Assembly: GCA_946535985.1 (NCBI GenBank)
Contig: CAMNDY010000008.1
Span: forward strand, 1-64,000
Length of the DNA stretch: 64,000 bases
DNA from: an uncultured Treponema sp.
GTDB lineage: Bacteria > Spirochaetota > Spirochaetia > Treponematales > Treponemataceae
Reading direction: 5' to 3'
The notes under the pieces are model-generated. The model saw nothing but the letters and a program-made list of their open reading frames with translations. It was not told the origin of the DNA and made no database searches. Shown piece by piece: positions 210 to 58,231 of the stretch. Every line of letters begins with the position of its first letter. Within the stretch, counting starts at the first letter, position 1. The position numbers and the translations under genes were made by a program.

Positions 210-233
210 TTCGAGTCCTGCCCTCGCTATAAG
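210..233 (+). repeat. Inverted 24-nt copy of the tRNA-fMet 3' end
   Basis: These 24 bases are an exact inverted copy of 293-316, which covers the T-loop, the 3' half of the T stem, the 3' acceptor strand and a few bases past the tRNA. The two copies are 59 bp apart, with the tRNA terminator between them. No other part of a tRNA surrounds this copy, so it is a fragment. tRNA 3' ends are classic attachment sites for integrative elements. Such duplications are normally direct, so the inversion suggests a later rearrangement. Confidence 0.8.
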
Positions 234-247
234 AATACCTGTTAAAT

Positions 248-288
248 TAAAAACGCGTTTCCGTAATCTAGGAAACGCGTTTTCTTTT
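248..288. terminator. Bidirectional intrinsic terminator downstream of tRNA-fMet
   Basis: A perfect 12-bp inverted repeat (AAACGCGTTTCC, 8-nt loop, complement) is flanked by an A-rich left side and a T-rich right side, so it can act in both directions. On the minus strand it lies about 15 nt after the tRNA 3' end and is the likely terminator of that transcript. Confidence 0.8.
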
Positions 289-296
289 ATAGCTTA

Positions 297-369
297 TAGC
301 GAGGGCAGGACTCGAACCTGCGGCCTCCGGGTTATGAGCCCGACGAGCTGCCAACTGCTCTACCTCGCG
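297..369 (-). tRNA. Initiator tRNA-fMet (anticodon CAT)
   Basis: A complete cloverleaf of 73 nt. The acceptor is CGCGAGG paired with CCTCGCT, the D stem GAGC/GCTC, the anticodon loop CTCATAA, and the T arm GCAGG-TTCGAGT-CCTGC. The anticodon stem ends in three consecutive G-C pairs (GGG/CCC) next to the loop, the hallmark of initiator rather than elongator tRNA-Met. The first acceptor position is unpaired (C1 against U72), as expected for an initiator, although C1-A72 is the usual form. CCA is not encoded. The promoter is at 382-410 and the terminator at 248-288, so it is a monocistronic unit. Confidence 0.93.
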
Positions 370-1070: not shown

Positions 1071-1094
1071 CCCATCGACAAGCTCAGGGACCGC
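1071..1094. repeat. Dispersed TTCGACA-type repeat between ybaB and recR
   Basis: A copy of the dispersed repeat (core ATCGACAAGCTCAGGGACC here, one base off the usual TTCGAC). It fills almost all of the gap between the ybaB stop and the recR start and creates an in-frame N-terminal extension of recR that is probably not translated. Confidence 0.75.
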
Positions 1095-1101
1095 ACAAAG
1101 T

Positions 1102-7196: not shown

Positions 7197-7225
7197 AGCC
7201 AGACCAAAAGGTCTGGCTTTTTTTT
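7197..7225 (+). terminator. Intrinsic terminator after the 6688 gene
   Basis: A 9-bp stem AGCCAGACC / GGTCTGGCT with an AAAA loop, followed by a run of Ts. Confidence 0.92.
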
Positions 7226-7248
7226 CCTTCGACAGGCTCAGGAACCGC
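7226..7248. repeat. Dispersed TTCGACA-type repeat
   Basis: An intergenic copy (core CTTCGACAGGCTCAGGAAC) immediately after the terminator T-run. Confidence 0.8.
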
Positions 7249-7318
7249 GGCCTTCGGGATTGACCACTAGACATTTTAATAAAAATTTATAAAATATTTA
7301 TCAATTTTTTCCCCAATT

Positions 7319-22775: not shown

Positions 22776-24146
22776 ATGCAAAAGAAAATCATCTGGAGAA
22801 GTTTATCGATTTTTACAGCAGCCATCTTGCTTACCGGAAGCCTTTTATTTACCGGCTGCGACGAAGAGGAAAAAAAGCAAATGGAACAGTTTAAACAACA
22901 AGAATCTATTGGAACAAAGTTTCTTAAAAGTCAGGAAAATGCAGACAAAAAACCAAAACCTGCAGAGCCGGACGGACCTTCTACAAACGGTCTTGGTATT
23001 TCTGATGAAAAATATGAAGCAAGCATAAAGAAAAGTCTTGTTTCTAAAAACAACAATTATCTTGTAAAAAAGGTGCTTGAAAAAATGCGGGCCGGAGAAG
23101 AAGTGATTATTTCTACACTCGGCGGTTCTGTAACAGAAGGAGCAGGACCTTCTTCCTATACACAGGGCTACGCATACCAGTTCAAGGATATGTTCATAGA
23201 AAAATATGCTGCAAACAAAGATATGGTAAAATTTGTTCCTGCAGGAATTGGTGGAACACCTTCGCCAATGGGTCTTATCCGCTACCAGAAGGATGTTGTA
23301 AATAAGGGCGGCCGCGACCCGGATCTTTTGATTATTGAGTTTGCAGTAAACGACTGGCTTGAATGTTCTAAAACCCGCGCCATGGAATATCTTGTTCGCA
23401 ATGCACTTGAACATAACACAGCAGTAATTATGCTTTATGGTGCAGCAACTTATAATAACCAGCAGGCTCAGATCAAACCTGTTGCCGATTTTTATAAGCT
23501 TCCACAGGTAAGTGTAAGCGACGGACTTAGAGGTTCAGGTATAAATCAGCAGAATGGTTCTAAAGTTTATTATACCGATATGGTTCACCCTACAAAAAAT
23601 GGTCACACCTTTATGGCCCGCTGTATTCTTAATTTGATTGACGAAATTGACGCTTCTCCAATCGACGAAAAAGCCGCAATTCCGGAAGGCTATAAAAACG
23701 AAAATCCATTTATAAAGTTTGCAACAATCTATGGCGACACTCAGGACAAAAATGTTTCTATAAAGCCAGGTTCCTTTGACCACAAGGATGACGCAATTCA
23801 GGCATATATGCACGGAGGAAAAAGCTTCCCTCAGAACTGGAGCCGCAGCCCTTCGACAAGCTCAGGGACCGCAAACAACGAAGCCTTTACAATGACGCTC
23901 AATTGCAAAAGCCTCATAATGATTTACAAAAATGCAAACAACAATTCCTTTGGAAAGGCAGAGGTTTTTGTAGACGGACAATCTAAGGGAACTTATGCAG
24001 GCCACGAAGAAGGCGGCTGGAATAACTGTATGGTTGTTATGATTATTGATGAAGCAAGTTCTTCGCAGCACACGGTAGAAATTAAACCTGCCGCAGGCGA
24101 CGAAGATAAATCATTTACAATTTTAGCCTTTGGTTATGCACAGTAA
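22776..24146 (+). CDS. SGNH/GDSL-family esterase lipoprotein
   Basis: 456 aa. Lipobox FTGC (Cys about 28) then a charged linker. Residues about 100-290 carry the SGNH blocks: GGSVTEGAG (the GDS serine), AGIGGTPSP (Gly), IIEFAVNDWLE (Asn) and TDMVHPTKNGH (Asp/His). A C-terminal domain of about 110 residues looks beta-rich (VDGQSKGTYAGHEEGGW). The two domains are joined by SPSTSSGTA, which is encoded by a copy of the dispersed repeat at 23849-23872. It is probably a surface carbohydrate esterase (deacetylase-type), which would suit the xylanase at 32057; substrate not provable. Ribosome binding site AAGGAG. Confidence 0.82.
   Translation: MQKKIIWRSLSIFTAAILLTGSLLFTGCDEEEKKQMEQFKQQESIGTKFLKSQENADKKPKPAEPDGPSTNGLGISDEKYEASIKKSLVSKNNNYLVKKVLEKMRAGEEVIISTLGGSVTEGAGPSSYTQGYAYQFKDMFIEKYAANKDMVKFVPAGIGGTPSPMGLIRYQKDVVNKGGRDPDLLIIEFAVNDWLECSKTRAMEYLVRNALEHNTAVIMLYGAATYNNQQAQIKPVADFYKLPQVSVSDGLRGSGINQQNGSKVYYTDMVHPTKNGHTFMARCILNLIDEIDASPIDEKAAIPEGYKNENPFIKFATIYGDTQDKNVSIKPGSFDHKDDAIQAYMHGGKSFPQNWSRSPSTSSGTANNEAFTMTLNCKSLIMIYKNANNNSFGKAEVFVDGQSKGTYAGHEEGGWNNCMVVMIIDEASSSQHTVEIKPAAGDEDKSFTILAFGYAQ
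23849..23872 (+). repeat. Dispersed TTCGACA-type repeat inside the SGNH gene
   Basis: Exact core CTTCGACAAGCTCAGGGAC, in frame, reading PSTSSGT in the interdomain linker of the esterase. Confidence 0.85.
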
Positions 24147-34159: not shown

Positions 34160-34311
34160 GAAAAAATAGCGCGAAGCCGAATTGCAGATTACAAAAATGC
34201 TCTACACTGCTGCCGCGAAAGCGGCAACGTATATAATTACAAGGCAGTGTAGCGCATAGGCGGTGAACCGCCGGTTTTGCAAGGCGTAATTCGGCTGGAA
34301 GCTATTTTTTC
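34160..34311 (+). ncRNA. Structured multi-hairpin element upstream of guaA (element A)
   Basis: Occupies the middle of the 339-bp gap before guaA. Outer stem GAAAAAATAGC / GCTATTTTTTC, then a GCGA/GGAA internal loop, then AGCCGAATT / AATTCGGCT. Inside are CTACACTGC / GCAGTGTAG holding a nested GCCGC-GAAA-GCGGC hairpin, then GGCGG-TGAA-CCGCC and an unpaired GGTTTTG. The tetraloops and the shared layout with 36445-36584 indicate a selected RNA or DNA fold. It has no convincing frame. Whether it is a stand-alone RNA, a leader or a mobile repeat is open. Confidence 0.6.
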
Positions 34312-36286: not shown

Positions 36287-36321
36287 ACAGCATTTTTAAT
36301 TACATGAGTTTTAATATAAAA

Positions 36322-36397
36322 AATTGCTTCCAGCCGAATTCCGTCTTGAAAAATCGGCGGTTAACCGCCTAAACGCCTTGGAACTATATATGTTCCC
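36322..36397 (-). repeat. Truncated structured element downstream of guaA (element B)
   Basis: On the minus strand it matches the 3' half of element A: a GGCGG-TTAA-CCGCC hairpin, a T-rich single strand, CAAGACGGAATTCGGCTGG then AAGCAATTTTTT. A small GGAAC/GTTCC hairpin precedes it. The expected 5' half is missing, and a MITE sits directly at that end. So guaA has copies of the same element on both sides, in opposite orientation. Confidence 0.6.
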
Positions 36398-36407
36398 GCC
36401 TGATCCC

Positions 36408-36622
36408 CAGGGCTTCCGCATTATAAATAATTAAATATATTTATGTGGCGCGAAGGAACAAAACGGAGGACAAAATGACTCTGACTGTTGATGCCGCGGG
36501 AGCGGCATTTAATAGTTCCACTACAACAGTCAGCGGCAAGCGGCTAGCCGCGGTTTTGACCTCCGTTTTGTGACTGGGAGCCACTATAATAGTGATATTT
36601 TATTTATAATGCGGAAGCCCTG
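36408..36622. mobile_element. 215-bp MITE with perfect 23-bp terminal inverted repeats
   Basis: The ends are perfect 23-bp inverted repeats (36408-36430 and 36600-36622, starting CAGGGCTTCCGCA). A 10-bp direct repeat GCCTGATCCC immediately flanks both sides (36398-36407 and 36623-36632), as expected for a target-site duplication. There is no transposase, so it would be moved in trans. The duplication length is in the range of some IS4-type elements, but I cannot name the parent. The interior carries element C. Together with element B it accounts for most of the 410-bp gap between guaA and the LysM gene. Confidence 0.88.
36445..36584 (+). ncRNA. Structured multi-hairpin element inside the MITE (element C)
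   Basis: Same layout as element A with different stems: GTGGC/GCCAC outer stem, a GCGA/GGGA loop bounded by AG/CT, AAAACGGAGG / CCTCCGTTTT, then GACTGTTG / CAACAGTC holding GCCGC-GGGA-GCGGC, then GCGGC-TA-GCCGC and an unpaired GGTTTTG. Stem sequences differ from element A while pairing is kept; loops and the GGTTTTG strand are conserved. This pattern points to selection on the fold. Confidence 0.6.
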
Positions 36623-36696
36623 GCCTGATCCCATCCTATTCCCTATCATTCTTCTCTTTGGTATAATTGGGTATTATTTTTACAGGAGGATGATTT

Positions 36697-37152
36697 ATGA
36701 AAAAATTATCTGTAATTTTTATGGCTCTGATTGCCGCTCTTGTGCTTGCAGGTTGTAAGTCTACTGGAAACCAGGAAGCTGTAAATGAATCATTCAAAAA
36801 AGTATACACAACCTATTCTGGAATCGTTAATCTTGACGGTGCAGAAGACTACACGGTAGCAGAAGGAGACACCCTTACTTCTATCGCAAAGGCAAAATAT
36901 GGCGAGGATAACGGATACTACTTCCCTCTTATCATGGTAGCATCAAAGAATGTAAGCGATCCAGAGCTCATCAGTCCGGGTGCTCAGCTTGTTATCCCAT
37001 CTTACGATGCAAATATCAATGACAAGGAACAGGCTGCAAAACTCAAGCCTTACTTCAAAGACATTGCCAATGTTTACAAACAGAAAAGAACACCAGGTGC
37101 CGCCGATATCCGCGAGCAGCTCCTCTTGATTTCTGAAGACTTGGGAAAATAA
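36697..37152 (+). CDS. LysM-domain lipoprotein
   Basis: 151 aa. Lipobox LAGC (Cys 20). One LysM domain (residues about 51-105: DYTVAEGDTLTSIAKAKYGED through ISPGAQLVIPSY), which binds peptidoglycan or related glycans. The C-terminal tail is helical. It is likely a cell-wall-contacting periplasmic lipoprotein. AGGAGG ribosome binding site. Monocistronic, with a strong terminator at 37171-37219. Confidence 0.88.
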   Translation: MKKLSVIFMALIAALVLAGCKSTGNQEAVNESFKKVYTTYSGIVNLDGAEDYTVAEGDTLTSIAKAKYGEDNGYYFPLIMVASKNVSDPELISPGAQLVIPSYDANINDKEQAAKLKPYFKDIANVYKQKRTPGAADIREQLLLISEDLGK

Positions 37153-37170
37153 ACAAATAATTTTAATTGA

Positions 37171-37219
37171 AAAAGCCGTGCACTTCAAGCTCGTAGTGAA
37201 GTGCACGGCTTTTTTTTAT
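37171..37219 (+). terminator. Intrinsic terminator after the LysM gene
   Basis: A 15-bp stem (AAGCCGTGCACTTCA and complement, 9-nt loop) followed by eight Ts. Confidence 0.95.
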
Positions 37220-37331
37220 TTGACAATGTAATATTTCTTCCAAATTTCACTTGCATTTTGTTTACATAATGTATCACAATATCACTATATTGCTAGTAAA
37301 AAATTCAAAAATACTTGCGTAAAGTTATATT

Positions 37332-37649
37332 ATGACAGAAGATGAGTTGCAGACACGGGTCATTCAAAATATCCGTGCTTTACGTAAAAAGAAGGGATTT
37401 TCACAGGAAAGACTGGCAGATAAAGCTGATATTTCACGACAAATGATGAATGATATTGAGGGACGTCGACGCTGGCTTACAAAAAGAACTCTTGTCAAAC
37501 TTGCAAATGCACTTGAGGTGGATGTCCACGAACTTTTTATTCCTTCTGCTCAGGAAAACGAAAAAACAAAAGGGATTTACGACACAATTACCCAGGAAGT
37601 TGTTTCGCAGGTAAAAGAAGCAGTTAATAAGGCCTTAAAAAACTTATAA
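37332..37649 (+). CDS. Small XRE-family helix-turn-helix regulator
   Basis: 105 aa. Residues 10-70 form an XRE/Cro-type HTH (NIRALRKKKGFSQERLADKA, ISRQMMNDIEGRRRW, ANALEVDVHELF). The tail (residues 75-105) is a helix that may dimerise. No Shine-Dalgarno precedes the ATG. An upstream TATATT at 37286-37291 could be the -10, leaving a leader of about 35 nt. Its target is unknown; the closest downstream gene is glmS, with a leader region in between. Confidence 0.82.
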   Translation: MTEDELQTRVIQNIRALRKKKGFSQERLADKADISRQMMNDIEGRRRWLTKRTLVKLANALEVDVHELFIPSAQENEKTKGIYDTITQEVVSQVKEAVNKALKNL

Positions 37650-39729: not shown

Positions 39730-39793
39730 CATAATATTACTGAACCTTGAAGCCACCAGTTTATTTGAATAATTAAATATGGAGAAAAAGTAT

Positions 39794-40924
39794 ATGAAAA
39801 ACTTTTTGAAAATAGCTGTGTTGTCATTAGTGCTTTGTGTAACATTTACAGGTTGTGTATGGGATGACAAGAAAGAAGGTGCTATACATAACCCAATATC
39901 TTTAACCATGGACAAATGGGAAAAAGGCAGTATTTCTCCGGGAAAAGAAACAGCAGGTGTTAAGTATTATATAATTTTTGCAAGAAGAGCAGCAACTCAT
40001 CGCATTTATGTTAAAATGGATACAGTTAAAAATCTTGATATCTATATACTTAACAGCGCTTATGAACAAATAGGTAGCAGAAATGATTTTGATGGAGATA
40101 CCGGGAGGGTTTTCTATGCAGAATGGGAAGCCGAGCCTGGTAAAGTTTACTACATAAAAGCCGAAGGAAATTATACTAATACATCCGGTTCCTTCTGGAT
40201 TGGATATACAGATTTTCCTGCTCGCCCAGAAACTGTTTTTACTGAATTAACACAGAATAAATGGACAAACGGTAATATTGTAAGTCCAAATAATGGTGGA
40301 ACAGGAGAGCAATGGTTTACATTTGTTGCAACAGAAGATACCCAGTATATTTATGTAAAATTCAGTACATGTACAGATTTAGATTTATACATATATGACA
40401 GTAATTATAACCAGATAGGCGATAGAATAGATGCCGGAGGCTATGGATGGGTAGCAAGTCAAATTTTCAGCACATACAGATCATCTTTAGAAATTGGTAA
40501 AACCTATTATATTAAAGCCGACTATGGCACAGGAAACTTCTGGATTGGTTTTACAGATTTCCCAGCTACTCCAGAAGCTGTCATTTCTCCATTAACCGAA
40601 AACGAATGGGCCCAGGGAAATATCAAGAGCCAAAGCAGTGGCGGTCTTGGTGAGCAATGGTTTACATTTGTTGCAACAGATGAGACACAATATATCTTTG
40701 TAAAATTCAGTTCCTGTACAGAGTTAGATTTATATATATACGACAGTGATCTTAACCAGATTGGCAGCAGATTTGATGCCGGAGGTTATGGATGGGAAGC
40801 AGGTCAAATCGACAAAACTTCCAGAACACTTGTCAGCGGCCAAACATATTATATATTGGCAAATTATAATACTGGTACCTTTTGGATAACCTTTGGTCCC
40901 GATAGTGTAGCTCCGGCTCCTTAA
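39794..40924 (+). CDS. Lipoprotein with three PPC-like repeats
   Basis: 376 aa from the ATG at 39794 (GGAGAAAAAG upstream; an ATG five codons earlier overlaps this site). Lipobox FTGC. It contains three units of about 115 residues. Each has WxxGxI, an EQWFTFVATxxTQYIYVKF-type strand, LDLYIYDSxxxQIG and a YYIxAxYxTGxFWIGFTDFP ending. The pattern resembles bacterial pre-peptidase C-terminal (PPC) beta domains. The first unit is the most divergent. First of six adjacent lipoprotein genes. Confidence 0.75.
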   Translation: MKNFLKIAVLSLVLCVTFTGCVWDDKKEGAIHNPISLTMDKWEKGSISPGKETAGVKYYIIFARRAATHRIYVKMDTVKNLDIYILNSAYEQIGSRNDFDGDTGRVFYAEWEAEPGKVYYIKAEGNYTNTSGSFWIGYTDFPARPETVFTELTQNKWTNGNIVSPNNGGTGEQWFTFVATEDTQYIYVKFSTCTDLDLYIYDSNYNQIGDRIDAGGYGWVASQIFSTYRSSLEIGKTYYIKADYGTGNFWIGFTDFPATPEAVISPLTENEWAQGNIKSQSSGGLGEQWFTFVATDETQYIFVKFSSCTELDLYIYDSDLNQIGSRFDAGGYGWEAGQIDKTSRTLVSGQTYYILANYNTGTFWITFGPDSVAPAP

Positions 40925-51636: not shown

Positions 51637-52842
51637 ATGATAAAAAAGCGTGATTTTATTTGCAAATCATTTTTTATAGCCGCCTCACTTTCTGCCTTCC
51701 TTTTTGGAACCTCCTGTACAAGAGACAATGAAAGAGTTGTAAAAATCGGGCTCCTTCATTCTACAACAGGTTCCATGGCCTTTAGCGAAACTTCTGTTCT
51801 TAATGCAGAGCTTATGGCTATTCAGGAAATAAATGAAGCCGGCGGAGTTCTAGGCTGTAAAATTGAAGCAATTCAGGAAAACGGCAACAGTGATTTCAGG
51901 GATTTTACAGATAAGGCCCGTAAACTCATAGAAAAAGATCAGGTCGCTTCTATTTTTGGCTGCTGGACTTCGGATTCTCGCAAGGCTGTAAAAAATATTG
52001 TAGAAGAGCATTACAATCTTTTATGGTATCCTGTTCAGTATGAAGGCATGGAAGCAAGTCCTAATATTATGTATATGGGGGCCTGTCCTAACCAGCAGGT
52101 TGTTCCCGCCATTGATTTTTGTTTTGAACAATTAGGAAAGAAATTTTATCTTCTTGGAAGCGATTATGTTTTCCCGCAAATTGCAAACAAAATTATAAAG
52201 GCTCAGCTTAAAGAGCTTGGCGGTGAAGTTGTCGGCGAAACTTACGTAAACATGGACGAAGACCGTTTCCAGCTTATAATTAAAGAAATCCAGGACCTTA
52301 AACCTGATGTTATAATTAACACACTAAATGGAAATTCCAACGTATCTTTCTTTATTCAATTCCATAACTCAGGACTTGATGCCGAAGACTTTCCAATTAT
52401 GAGTTTTTCTATTGCCGAAAACGAAATTAACGAAATTGGTCCGGAATTTCTTGAAGGCCACTATGTTGCCTGGAATTATTTTGAATCTCTGGATACAAGT
52501 GCAAACAAAAAGTTTGTTCAAAAATACAAAGACATTTATGGTAGTAAAAAACATGTAGGAGACCCAATGGAAGCAGGCTACCTTGCAATTTATCTTTGGG
52601 CTGCTGCCTGCGAAAAAGCCGGTTCCTTTGATATTGAAGCGGTAAGAATCGCCTGTAAAAACCTCAGTTATATTGGACCGGAAGGATATGTAACAATCGA
52701 AGGCTCTAACCAGCATTTGAATAAGGTTGTTAGAGTTGGAAAAATAAATTCAGCAGGCCAGATAAAAGAAGTGTGGTCTACAAAAGATCCAATCCGCCCG
52801 GACCCATATTTAAGTACCTACGCCTGGGCAAGAGGATTGTAG
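51637..52842 (+). CDS. UrtA/AmiC-like periplasmic binding lipoprotein
   Basis: About 401 aa from the ATG at 51637 (GGGAA upstream; a TTG two codons earlier is less likely). Lipobox GTSC. Family 5 periplasmic binding protein of the urea/short-chain amide type: VKIGLLHSTTGSMAFSETSV, the EINEAGGVLG segment, ASIFGCWTSDSRKAV, YPVQYEGMEASPN and RPDPYLSTYAWARGL. No ABC permease or ATPase is adjacent. It begins 18 nt after the cyclase stop and is probably in the same operon, so it may deliver a ligand to the propeller sensor instead of to a transporter. That is inference. Confidence 0.85.
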   Translation: MIKKRDFICKSFFIAASLSAFLFGTSCTRDNERVVKIGLLHSTTGSMAFSETSVLNAELMAIQEINEAGGVLGCKIEAIQENGNSDFRDFTDKARKLIEKDQVASIFGCWTSDSRKAVKNIVEEHYNLLWYPVQYEGMEASPNIMYMGACPNQQVVPAIDFCFEQLGKKFYLLGSDYVFPQIANKIIKAQLKELGGEVVGETYVNMDEDRFQLIIKEIQDLKPDVIINTLNGNSNVSFFIQFHNSGLDAEDFPIMSFSIAENEINEIGPEFLEGHYVAWNYFESLDTSANKKFVQKYKDIYGSKKHVGDPMEAGYLAIYLWAAACEKAGSFDIEAVRIACKNLSYIGPEGYVTIEGSNQHLNKVVRVGKINSAGQIKEVWSTKDPIRPDPYLSTYAWARGL

Positions 52843-52843
52843 T

Positions 52844-52865
52844 GGTCCCTGAGCCTGTCGAAGGG
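52844..52865. repeat. Dispersed TTCGACA-type repeat between convergent genes
   Basis: Inverse-orientation copy (GTCCCTGAGCCTGTCGAAG) filling the gap between the stops of the UrtA-like and CHASE2 genes. Confidence 0.85.
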
Positions 52866-56567: not shown

Positions 56568-58211
56568 ATGAAAGAGACTGTTACAATAACCGTAAAACCC
56601 GAACAGGAAAAAAACACAAAACTCATCGAAAAACTTATTATTTCGCAGGTGAAAAAGCGCGGCAACAAAAATATTCTTGTATTTTGCAAACGCTCTGTTG
56701 ATGCGCGACATGGTCAGGTAAAAATTCATTTACGTTATGATGTTTATATTGATGAAGAAGCTCCGGCTTTGACGACAAAACTTCCTGTCTGGAAAAAGGC
56801 CGACGGGAAGCATACAGTTGTAATTATTGGTTCAGGACCGGCCGGACTTTTTGGAGCCCTGAAGCTTTTAGAATACGGAATAAAACCAATTATTATTGAA
56901 CGTGGTCCAGACACAACACAACGTCGTAAAGATATAGCCCTTATAAGCAAAGAGGATTTTGTAAACCCCGAAAGCAACTATTGTTTTGGCGAAGGTGGTG
57001 CGGGAACTTTTTCTGACGGAAAACTTTATACAAGATCGAACAAGCGCGGAGACATCAGCAGTATCCTTCAGATTTTTCATGCCTTTGGCGCCGATGAGAA
57101 AATCCTTACAGACGCACATCCTCATATTGGAACAGACAGGCTTCCAAAAATCATAAATGCCATGCGGAACAAAATAATTGAGCTTGGCGGCGAGGTGCGC
57201 TTTAATACCAGGTGCTCTGATTTTATTATTGAAGATGGCAGAGTGAAGGGTGTGGTTTGTGAAAGTGGCCCTTCGACCCCTTCGACAGGCTCAGAGATTT
57301 CATGCGATGCTGTTCTTCTTGCTACAGGACATTCTGCAACAGATATTTATGAACTTTTAGCCCGTCTTGCTCCCCAGGCTCTTGAAGCAAAAACCTTTGC
57401 AATGGGCGTTCGTGTGGAACATCCCCGACAGATAATTGACCAGCTGCAATATCACGGAAAACAAAATCAGGAAGGCGGACAAAATCTTGGAGCAGCCGAA
57501 TACAGGGTTACTACTCAGGTTGATGGCCGGGGAGTATATTCCTTTTGTATGTGCCCAGGCGGCTTTGTAGTTCCTTCGGCAAGCGGCCCGGATGAAATTG
57601 TTGTAAACGGAATGTCTGCAGCGGCACGTAACTCTAAATGGTCAAATGCGGCTATTGTTGTAGAAACCAGACCGGAAGATATCCCGGAGGAATATGTTGA
57701 GTCTGCACGCAAGGCAGGAAGTCCGGCACTTGCAGGCCTTCTTTTTCGTACAAAAATCGAAGAAGATGCAAAAATCAATGGCAAGGGACAAGCAGCTCCA
57801 GCCCAGCTTCTCACAGATTTTCTTGAAAAGCGCAAAAGCTTGCCCGAAAAGCTTCCTGCAACAAGTTATACCCCAGGAATTGTAAGCTCAAATCTTAATG
57901 ACTGGCTGCCTGCTCAAATTGCAGATAAACTTGCCATGGGCATCCGTCAGATAGACCAGAGCATGAAAGGTTTTATATGTCCACAAGCCCTTATGATTGC
58001 TCCGGAAACACGCACAAGCACTCCTGTACGCATTCTTCGCAATAAAGAGACATTTGAATGTATGGGAATTAAAGGCCTCTATCCCGCAGGAGAAGGCTCC
58101 GGTTACGCAGGAGGGATTGTTTCAAGTGCAATGGATGGAGAGAATGCAGCACGGGCAATTTGCGAGGCCCTTCGACAGGCTCAGGGACCACGAACCAGTT
58201 GTGGTTCCTGA
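56568..58211 (+). CDS. FAD-dependent dehydrogenase (COG2509 type)
   Basis: 547 aa. A short N-terminal domain with RSVDARHGQVKIHLRYDVYI, then an FAD-binding Rossmann motif VVIIGSGPAGLFGALKLLEYG (about 84-104), RGPDTTQRRKDI, GEGGAGTFSDGKLYTR and ATGHSATDIYELL, then a C-terminal FAD closure GIKGLYPAGEGSGYAGGIVSSAMDG (written in full at positions 58066-58140). Proteins of this group are uncharacterised oxidoreductases. Two copies of the dispersed repeat lie inside: one gives GPSTPSTGSE in a loop near residue 240, the other encodes the last 12 residues and its inverted partner supplies the stop. Convergent with pth. Confidence 0.87.
   Translation: MKETVTITVKPEQEKNTKLIEKLIISQVKKRGNKNILVFCKRSVDARHGQVKIHLRYDVYIDEEAPALTTKLPVWKKADGKHTVVIIGSGPAGLFGALKLLEYGIKPIIIERGPDTTQRRKDIALISKEDFVNPESNYCFGEGGAGTFSDGKLYTRSNKRGDISSILQIFHAFGADEKILTDAHPHIGTDRLPKIINAMRNKIIELGGEVRFNTRCSDFIIEDGRVKGVVCESGPSTPSTGSEISCDAVLLATGHSATDIYELLARLAPQALEAKTFAMGVRVEHPRQIIDQLQYHGKQNQEGGQNLGAAEYRVTTQVDGRGVYSFCMCPGGFVVPSASGPDEIVVNGMSAAARNSKWSNAAIVVETRPEDIPEEYVESARKAGSPALAGLLFRTKIEEDAKINGKGQAAPAQLLTDFLEKRKSLPEKLPATSYTPGIVSSNLNDWLPAQIADKLAMGIRQIDQSMKGFICPQALMIAPETRTSTPVRILRNKETFECMGIKGLYPAGEGSGYAGGIVSSAMDGENAARAICEALRQAQGPRTSCGS
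57269..57295 (+). repeat. Dispersed TTCGACA-type repeat inside the FAD gene
   Basis: In-frame copy with a partial tandem duplication (CCCTTCGAC then CTTCGACAGGCTCAGAG), reading PSTPSTGSE. Confidence 0.85.
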
Positions 58212-58223
58212 GCCTGTCGAAGG
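58168..58223. repeat. Inverted pair of the dispersed repeat, large hairpin
   Basis: Two facing copies with 23-bp arms (58169-58191 and 58201-58223, one G-T pair) and a 9-nt loop. The left copy is coding (LRQAQGP) and the right copy contains the TGA stop of the FAD gene. It lies between convergent genes and may act as a transcription barrier. Confidence 0.88.
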
Positions 58224-58231
58224 ACCACCTG

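What the first reader, a model, noticed from the sequence alone, without database searches (positions are those of the whole stretch)
36398..36632. A textbook MITE: 215 bp, perfect 23-bp inverted ends and a 10-bp target duplication
Ends 36408-36430 and 36600-36622 are perfect inverted repeats, flanked on both sides by GCCTGATCCC. There is no coding capacity, so it moves only if a transposase elsewhere recognises the ends. Its lack of end or duplication decay suggests recent insertion. It carries a structured element (element C) related to the one before guaA, an unusual cargo.
Basis: seen in the sequence. Interest (0 to 1): 0.75.

Follow-up and report, generated by a model that had tools for sequence, protein, structure and literature searches.

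The report
ISAs1-type MITE with hairpin core
This is a real, fairly recently inserted 215-bp mini-transposon with the end sequences of ISAs1-family jumping genes; the unusual part is the hairpin-folded middle it carries, which occurs in at least 50 copies in this treponeme-like genome, mostly with quite different flanking arms.

Summary
It is a MITE. The same draft genome holds six more near-full-length copies (86-96%) and five half copies at contig ends; other copies also have 10-bp duplications. ISAs1-family insertion sequences carry matching ends: in a congener a 1,266-bp IS with a 384-aa ISAs1 transposase ends CAGGGCAAACGCATTATAGA; in Marinobacterium, Methylobacter and Methylomonas, ISAs1 elements end CAGGGCAAACGCATGA or CAGGGCAATCGC with exact 10-bp duplications. 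The transposase was not found in this 86%-complete assembly, so mobilisation in trans is inferred.

The cargo is the surprising part. Its ~145-nt core belongs to a genus-limited family (22 of 35 congeners, 0 of 24 genomes of other genera; 50 hits here). In 28 of 38 consensus pairs both partners have changed and still pair, yet G-T pairs (18) barely exceed A-C mismatches (15) among 1,891 cells. Most copies lack ISAs1 ends and sit inside locus-specific inverted repeats that can include neighbouring gene sequence; inverted flank similarity far exceeds direct similarity (P=5e-14). Replication template switching would explain this but is not proven. The core's function is unknown.

The parts
36398..36407 (.). 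left copy of the 10-bp target duplication GCCTGATCCC
   Evidence: sequence; script, (0 mismatches)
36408..36430 (+). left terminal inverted repeat CAGGGCTTCCGCATTATAAATAA (ISAs1-type end)
   Evidence: compared with ISAs1 ends
36431..36442 (+). AT-rich spacer between end and core
   Evidence: sequence; alignment
36443..36586 (+). structured core ('element C'): outer stem, long second stem, junction with a covarying 4-bp helix and two hairpins; conserved ATAGTTCC, GCGCGAA and GGGAGC
   Evidence: covariance-model hit L001:1546-1689, 117 bits; alignment and fold
36587..36599 (+). AT-rich spacer between core and right end
   Evidence: sequence
36600..36622 (-). right terminal inverted repeat
36623..36632 (.). 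right copy of the 10-bp target duplication GCCTGATCCC
   Evidence: sequence
36315..36399 (-). truncated, inverted copy of a stand-alone C element directly abutting the MITE; the MITE sits at its broken end
   Evidence: blastn hit 77% to the guaA-leader copy; weak model hit, 33 bits, over 36321-36456
34164..34307 (+). intact stand-alone C element in the divergent intergenic region upstream of guaA; same core family, no CAGGG ends
   Evidence: 148 bits with the model; sequence

Best explanation
36408-36622 is a non-autonomous MITE moved in trans by an ISAs1-family DDE transposase. The transposase binds the CAGGGC..CGCAT ends, excises or copies the element and joins it to a staggered cut, leaving a 10-bp duplication. 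SHOWN: the ends, the exact duplication, multiple copies, and ISAs1 elements with the same ends and duplication length. INFERRED: that the ISAs1 transposase acts on this MITE, that it still moves, and that the transposase gene was lost or fell in an assembly gap. The interior is not a shrunken transposase gene but an independent hairpin module that also exists without these ends. Its pairing is kept as strict Watson-Crick, most simply because long DNA hairpins are repeatedly corrected or extended by template switching during replication; that last step is inference at about 45%.
For: Copies: six near-full-length at 86-96% plus five half copies at contig ends. Duplications: L001, L002 and L079 exact by script or by eye after a one-base shift; L096 1 mismatch; L081, L094 2; L007, L088 3; L003 and L004, on two contig ends, share TATTGTTAGA. 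Partner: G046 IS, 1,266 bp, 384-aa transposase, NF033564 359.6 bits over a cut-off of 70, PF13808 + PF01609, ends TAGGGCAAACGCATTTTAAA and CAGGGCAAACGCATTATAGA; internally deleted ISAs1 derivatives with such ends in G056 and G023, and one with related ends and a 10-bp duplication in G053. Remote ISAs1 elements: L290 CAGGGCAAACGCATGA, duplication CCTGAACAGC; L258 CCCTCCGTGC; L274 CGTAGGATGC. Burst in G010: 97 + 105 end matches, 0 in the control. Interior: no ISAs1 coding remnant; the same core occurs with unrelated ends; 28 of 38 pairs doubly changed; G-T 18 vs A-C 15.
Against: No ISAs1 transposase found in this assembly by family or by protein search. The G046 IS differs at the inner CAA/CTT bases and has no visible duplication. 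Many TIR-bearing copies (about 18 of 26) lack a recognisable duplication. After thinning related sequences G-T does exceed A-C (7 vs 3, 13 vs 6), so an RNA role is not excluded. Arms at orthologous loci mostly show one-sided changes rather than concerted ones; one locus (9 observed vs 2.0 expected) is the exception.
Confidence: 0.9

Rival explanations
1. The core is a functional structured RNA (or RNA leader) spread by the MITE; base pairs covary because the RNA is selected.
For: Strong covariation and conserved unpaired bases; the + strand folds more stably in 48 of 50; in tandem gene pairs the core points with the genes in 13 of 15; orthologous copies persist at the same loci in different species.
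Against: G-U pairs are about 1% of pairs and nearly matched by A-C mismatches, low for an RNA; no Rfam family at gathering threshold or by permissive search; no expression data.
Confidence: 0.3
2. The core is recognised as folded single-stranded DNA by a recombinase or HUH-type enzyme, like REP or attC sites, and only hitchhikes in the ISAs1 MITE.
For: Strict Watson-Crick pairing with conserved extra-helical bases; core found in several end contexts and swapped at one orthologous locus (L010 vs L212).
Against: No cognate enzyme was looked for; no GTAG-hairpin signature conserved across copies.
Confidence: 0.15
3. The inverted flanks of stand-alone copies are old terminal repeats of many other transposon families rather than locus-derived sequence.
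For: Several share a GGAAATCAATTTT-like arm.
Against: Left and right flanks match within a locus but hardly between loci: score >= 28 in 37 of 100 vs 0.5% of swapped pairs. Arms can include neighbouring coding sequence or promoter, e.g. the guaA start and an upstream gene's last codons before tRNA-Gln.
Confidence: 0.2
4. The 215-bp unit is a chance palindrome or assembly artefact.
For: The assembly breaks inside several copies.
Against: Same element with different flanks inside long contigs and in other genomes; exact duplications.
Confidence: 0.01

Closest known systems
ISAs1-family insertion sequences (NF033564)
   Same: ends CAGGGC..CGCAT and 10-bp direct duplications, both seen here in ISAs1 elements
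   Different: no transposase gene inside; interior unrelated to the ISAs1 gene
Bacterial MITEs in general (for example those reported in Coxiella, PMC5896051, and MITEAba12, PMC6382973)
   Same: short, non-coding, terminal inverted repeats, target duplication, multicopy
   Different: the interior, not the ends, is the widely conserved part: it occurs with several unrelated end types
Inverted-repeat arms homogenised or created by replication template switching (PMC8794818, PMC8604942)
   Same: reverse-complement copies of nearby sequence, strict pairing of arms
   Different: here tied to one repeated hairpin family at many loci; the process itself was not observed
REP/REPIN palindromes (from general knowledge; REP-transposase paper PMC2817692 listed, not read)
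   Same: many intergenic hairpins persisting at orthologous sites
   Different: much longer, three-helix fold, no shown cognate transposase

Membership tests
MITE | short element without coding capacity | tested here: met
   215 bp, no substantial internal ORF
MITE | terminal inverted repeats | tested here: met
   23 of 23 bp
MITE | flanking target duplication | tested here: met
   10 of 10 bp; also L002
MITE | several dispersed copies | tested here: met
   six further near-full-length copies
MITE | autonomous partner with the same ends | tested here: met
   in congener G046; not found in this assembly
MITE | empty site in a related strain | tested here: inconclusive
   no conspecific held; G008 lacks the region between guaA and glmS
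ISAs1-mobilised element | CAGGG-type ends as in ISAs1 ISs | tested here: met
ISAs1-mobilised element | 10-bp duplication as in ISAs1 ISs | tested here: met
   L258, L274, L290 exact 10 bp
ISAs1 insertion sequence proper | encodes its own ISAs1 transposase | tested here: not met
   no ORF; hence a MITE, not an IS
ISAs1-mobilised element | transposition by the ISAs1 enzyme demonstrated | not testable with these tools
   needs an assay
Known structured RNA family (Rfam 15) | score over a family's gathering threshold | tested here: not met
REP/REPIN | cognate REP-associated tyrosine transposase in the genome | not tested
   not searched for

The most novel reading that the evidence does not exclude
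The core is a hairpin module that provokes inverted copying of its own flanks by template switching. Copies thereby acquire locus-specific palindromic arms, and a copy next to a single ISAs1 end could gain the second, inverted end and become a new mobile MITE: a route for the birth of MITEs in which the hairpin, not the transposon, comes first.
Probability: 0.25. Interest if true: 0.85.

Novelty: new variant of a known kind. Interest (0 to 1): 0.55.

Why it matters
As a MITE it is ordinary and now has a named likely mobiliser. The core is worth a specialist's time: a genus-limited repeat family in which base-pair covariation, usually taken as proof of functional RNA, comes with almost no wobble preference and with locus-specific inverted flanks reaching into genes. 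It is a natural test of whether DNA-level template switching can mimic RNA covariation and assemble transposable elements.

Tried and rejected
ISAs1 transposase in the own genome: none. A full IS around the solitary end at C76 (L044): no transposase; it proved to be a core-less ISAs1-type insertion replacing the middle of a C element that is intact at the G041 orthologue. guaA neighbourhood for an empty site: gene order differs between species. Rfam: nothing. Phage and plasmid collections: nothing. An exact TIR pattern in viral contigs gave 4 stretches, not followed. Gene-arrangement enrichment: divergent pairs looked enriched, but the window background is similar (8 divergent: 1 convergent), and a short-flank version was noisy and pointed the other way, so no claim is made. 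Concerted evolution of arms: supported at one locus only. Papers: no Treponema or ISAs1 MITE report found in the held library.

Full report
OBSERVATION. The stretch is as described: perfect 23-bp inverted ends at 36408-36430 and 36600-36622, and GCCTGATCCC on both sides. The interior has no coding capacity. The whole unit folds into one long branched hairpin, z = -12.

COPIES. The draft genome (2.78 Mb, 148 contigs, 86% complete) holds six further near-full-length copies at 86-96% identity and five half copies, all five at contig ends, as expected where a repeat breaks an assembly. The end sequence gives 10 forward and 8 reverse matches with at most three mismatches and none for the control pattern. 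L002 has its own exact 10-bp duplication. L003 and L004, near the ends of two contigs, share TATTGTTAGA beside the element, consistent with a single insertion seen from both sides. Across the genus 27 of 135 unique copies have CAGGG-type ends on both sides; 10-bp duplications with at most 3 mismatches appear in about 8 of 26 that could be tested (L079 read by eye).

MOBILISER. CAGGG ends and a duplication near 10 bp suggested the ISAs1 family (from memory, then tested). No ISAs1 transposase is found in this assembly. Among 59 genomes of the genus 11 have matches. The complete one, in G046, lies in a 1,266-bp element with ends TAGGGCAAACGCATTTTAAA and CAGGGCAAACGCATTATAGA; the 384-aa protein scores 359.6 bits to NF033564 and has the two Pfam domains DDE_Tnp_1_assoc and DDE_Tnp_1. 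Internally deleted ISAs1 derivatives with related ends are seen in G056, G023 and, with a 10-bp duplication GGCGGGGTGT, in G053. In remote bacteria ISAs1 elements end CAGGGCAAACGCATGA (Marinobacterium) or CAGGGCAATCGC (Methylobacter, Methylomonas) with exact 10-bp duplications. So ends and duplication length both match the family. That its enzyme moves this MITE is inferred.

THE CORGO MODULE. (Core = 36443-36586.) The core is not a leftover of an ISAs1 gene. A covariance model from 50 cores gives 50 scored hits in this genome and hits in 22 of 35 congeners, none in 24 genomes of other genera of the order (candidates scored per genome were capped at 53, so counts of 50-53 are floors). Most copies have no CAGGG ends (102 of 135). 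The copy before guaA (34164-34307) is of that kind, and a truncated inverted one (36315-36399) lies directly beside the MITE. Nearly the same core occurs with CAGGG ends (L001), with other inverted ends (L008) and with A/T-run ends (L085).

PAIRING. 28 of 38 consensus pairs have at least one sequence in which both partners changed and the pair is kept. In the junction helix one pair occurs as CG 15, GC 13, UA 11, AU 10. Yet G-T pairs (18) hardly exceed A-C mismatches (15) among 1,891 cells; after removing close relatives the counts are 7 vs 3 and 13 vs 6. Such a low share of wobble pairs is unusual for an RNA (general knowledge) and suggests pairing is kept largely at the DNA level. Unpaired motifs (ATAGTTNC, GGNAGC) are conserved, so something besides mutation bias acts. 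RNAalifold was run on a sequence-based alignment, but the later model alignments are fitted to the structure and lean towards it.

FLANKS. In copies without CAGGG ends the flanking sequence is itself an inverted repeat, specific to the locus, at similar distance on both sides, sometimes over 50 nt. Score >= 28 in 37 of 100 loci against 0.5% of flanks swapped between loci; inverted similarity exceeds direct similarity in the same flanks (37 vs 1 at that score; Wilcoxon P = 5e-14). Arms include parts of neighbouring genes: the guaA promoter and first codons, and the end of a lysine-rich gene whose inverted copy precedes tRNA-Gln in three species. Template switching in replication makes such reverse-complement copies and can maintain stems (PMC8794818, read in outline; PMC8604942, abstract only). 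Against it: orthologous arms mostly show one-sided change, with one exception.

LOCUS STABILITY AND EXCHANGE. Stand-alone copies persist at orthologous sites between species. At one site (L010 vs L212) outer flanks are alike but core and inner arms are different family members. At another (own C76 vs G041) a core-less ISAs1-type insertion has replaced the middle of the C element.

VERDICT. MITE of ISAs1 type: 0.9. What the core does is open; an RNA role, a folded-DNA site and a purely mutational hairpin remain possible.

Noticed in passing
window 1071-1095, 7225-7249, 23849-23873, 52839-52865, 57278-57302, 58166-58226: A second dispersed short repeat, CCTTCGACAGGCTCAGGGACC, occurs at least seven times in the window, in both orientations and once as a tight inverted pair.
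   Followed up: no
window 210-316: A perfect 24-nt inverted repeat overlaps the 3' part of the tRNA at 297-369 (-); possibly a second, divergent tRNA or remnant.
   Followed up: no
window 36697-37649: A LysM-like lipoprotein gene and an XRE-type regulator sit between guaA and glmS here; in G008 guaA is followed directly by glmS.
   Followed up: partly
window 40192-40828: Two 292-nt direct repeats (76%) inside one ORF, 39779-40924.
   Followed up: no
L099 (G003) around 1477-1623: The outer half of the MITE end is replaced on both sides by the same locus-specific sequence (AAAATCTGTCAGACTAAAG), so both arms changed alike.
   Followed up: partly
genome G010: About 200 MITE-end matches in a 2.3-Mb assembly, many near contig ends: a recent burst.
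   Followed up: no
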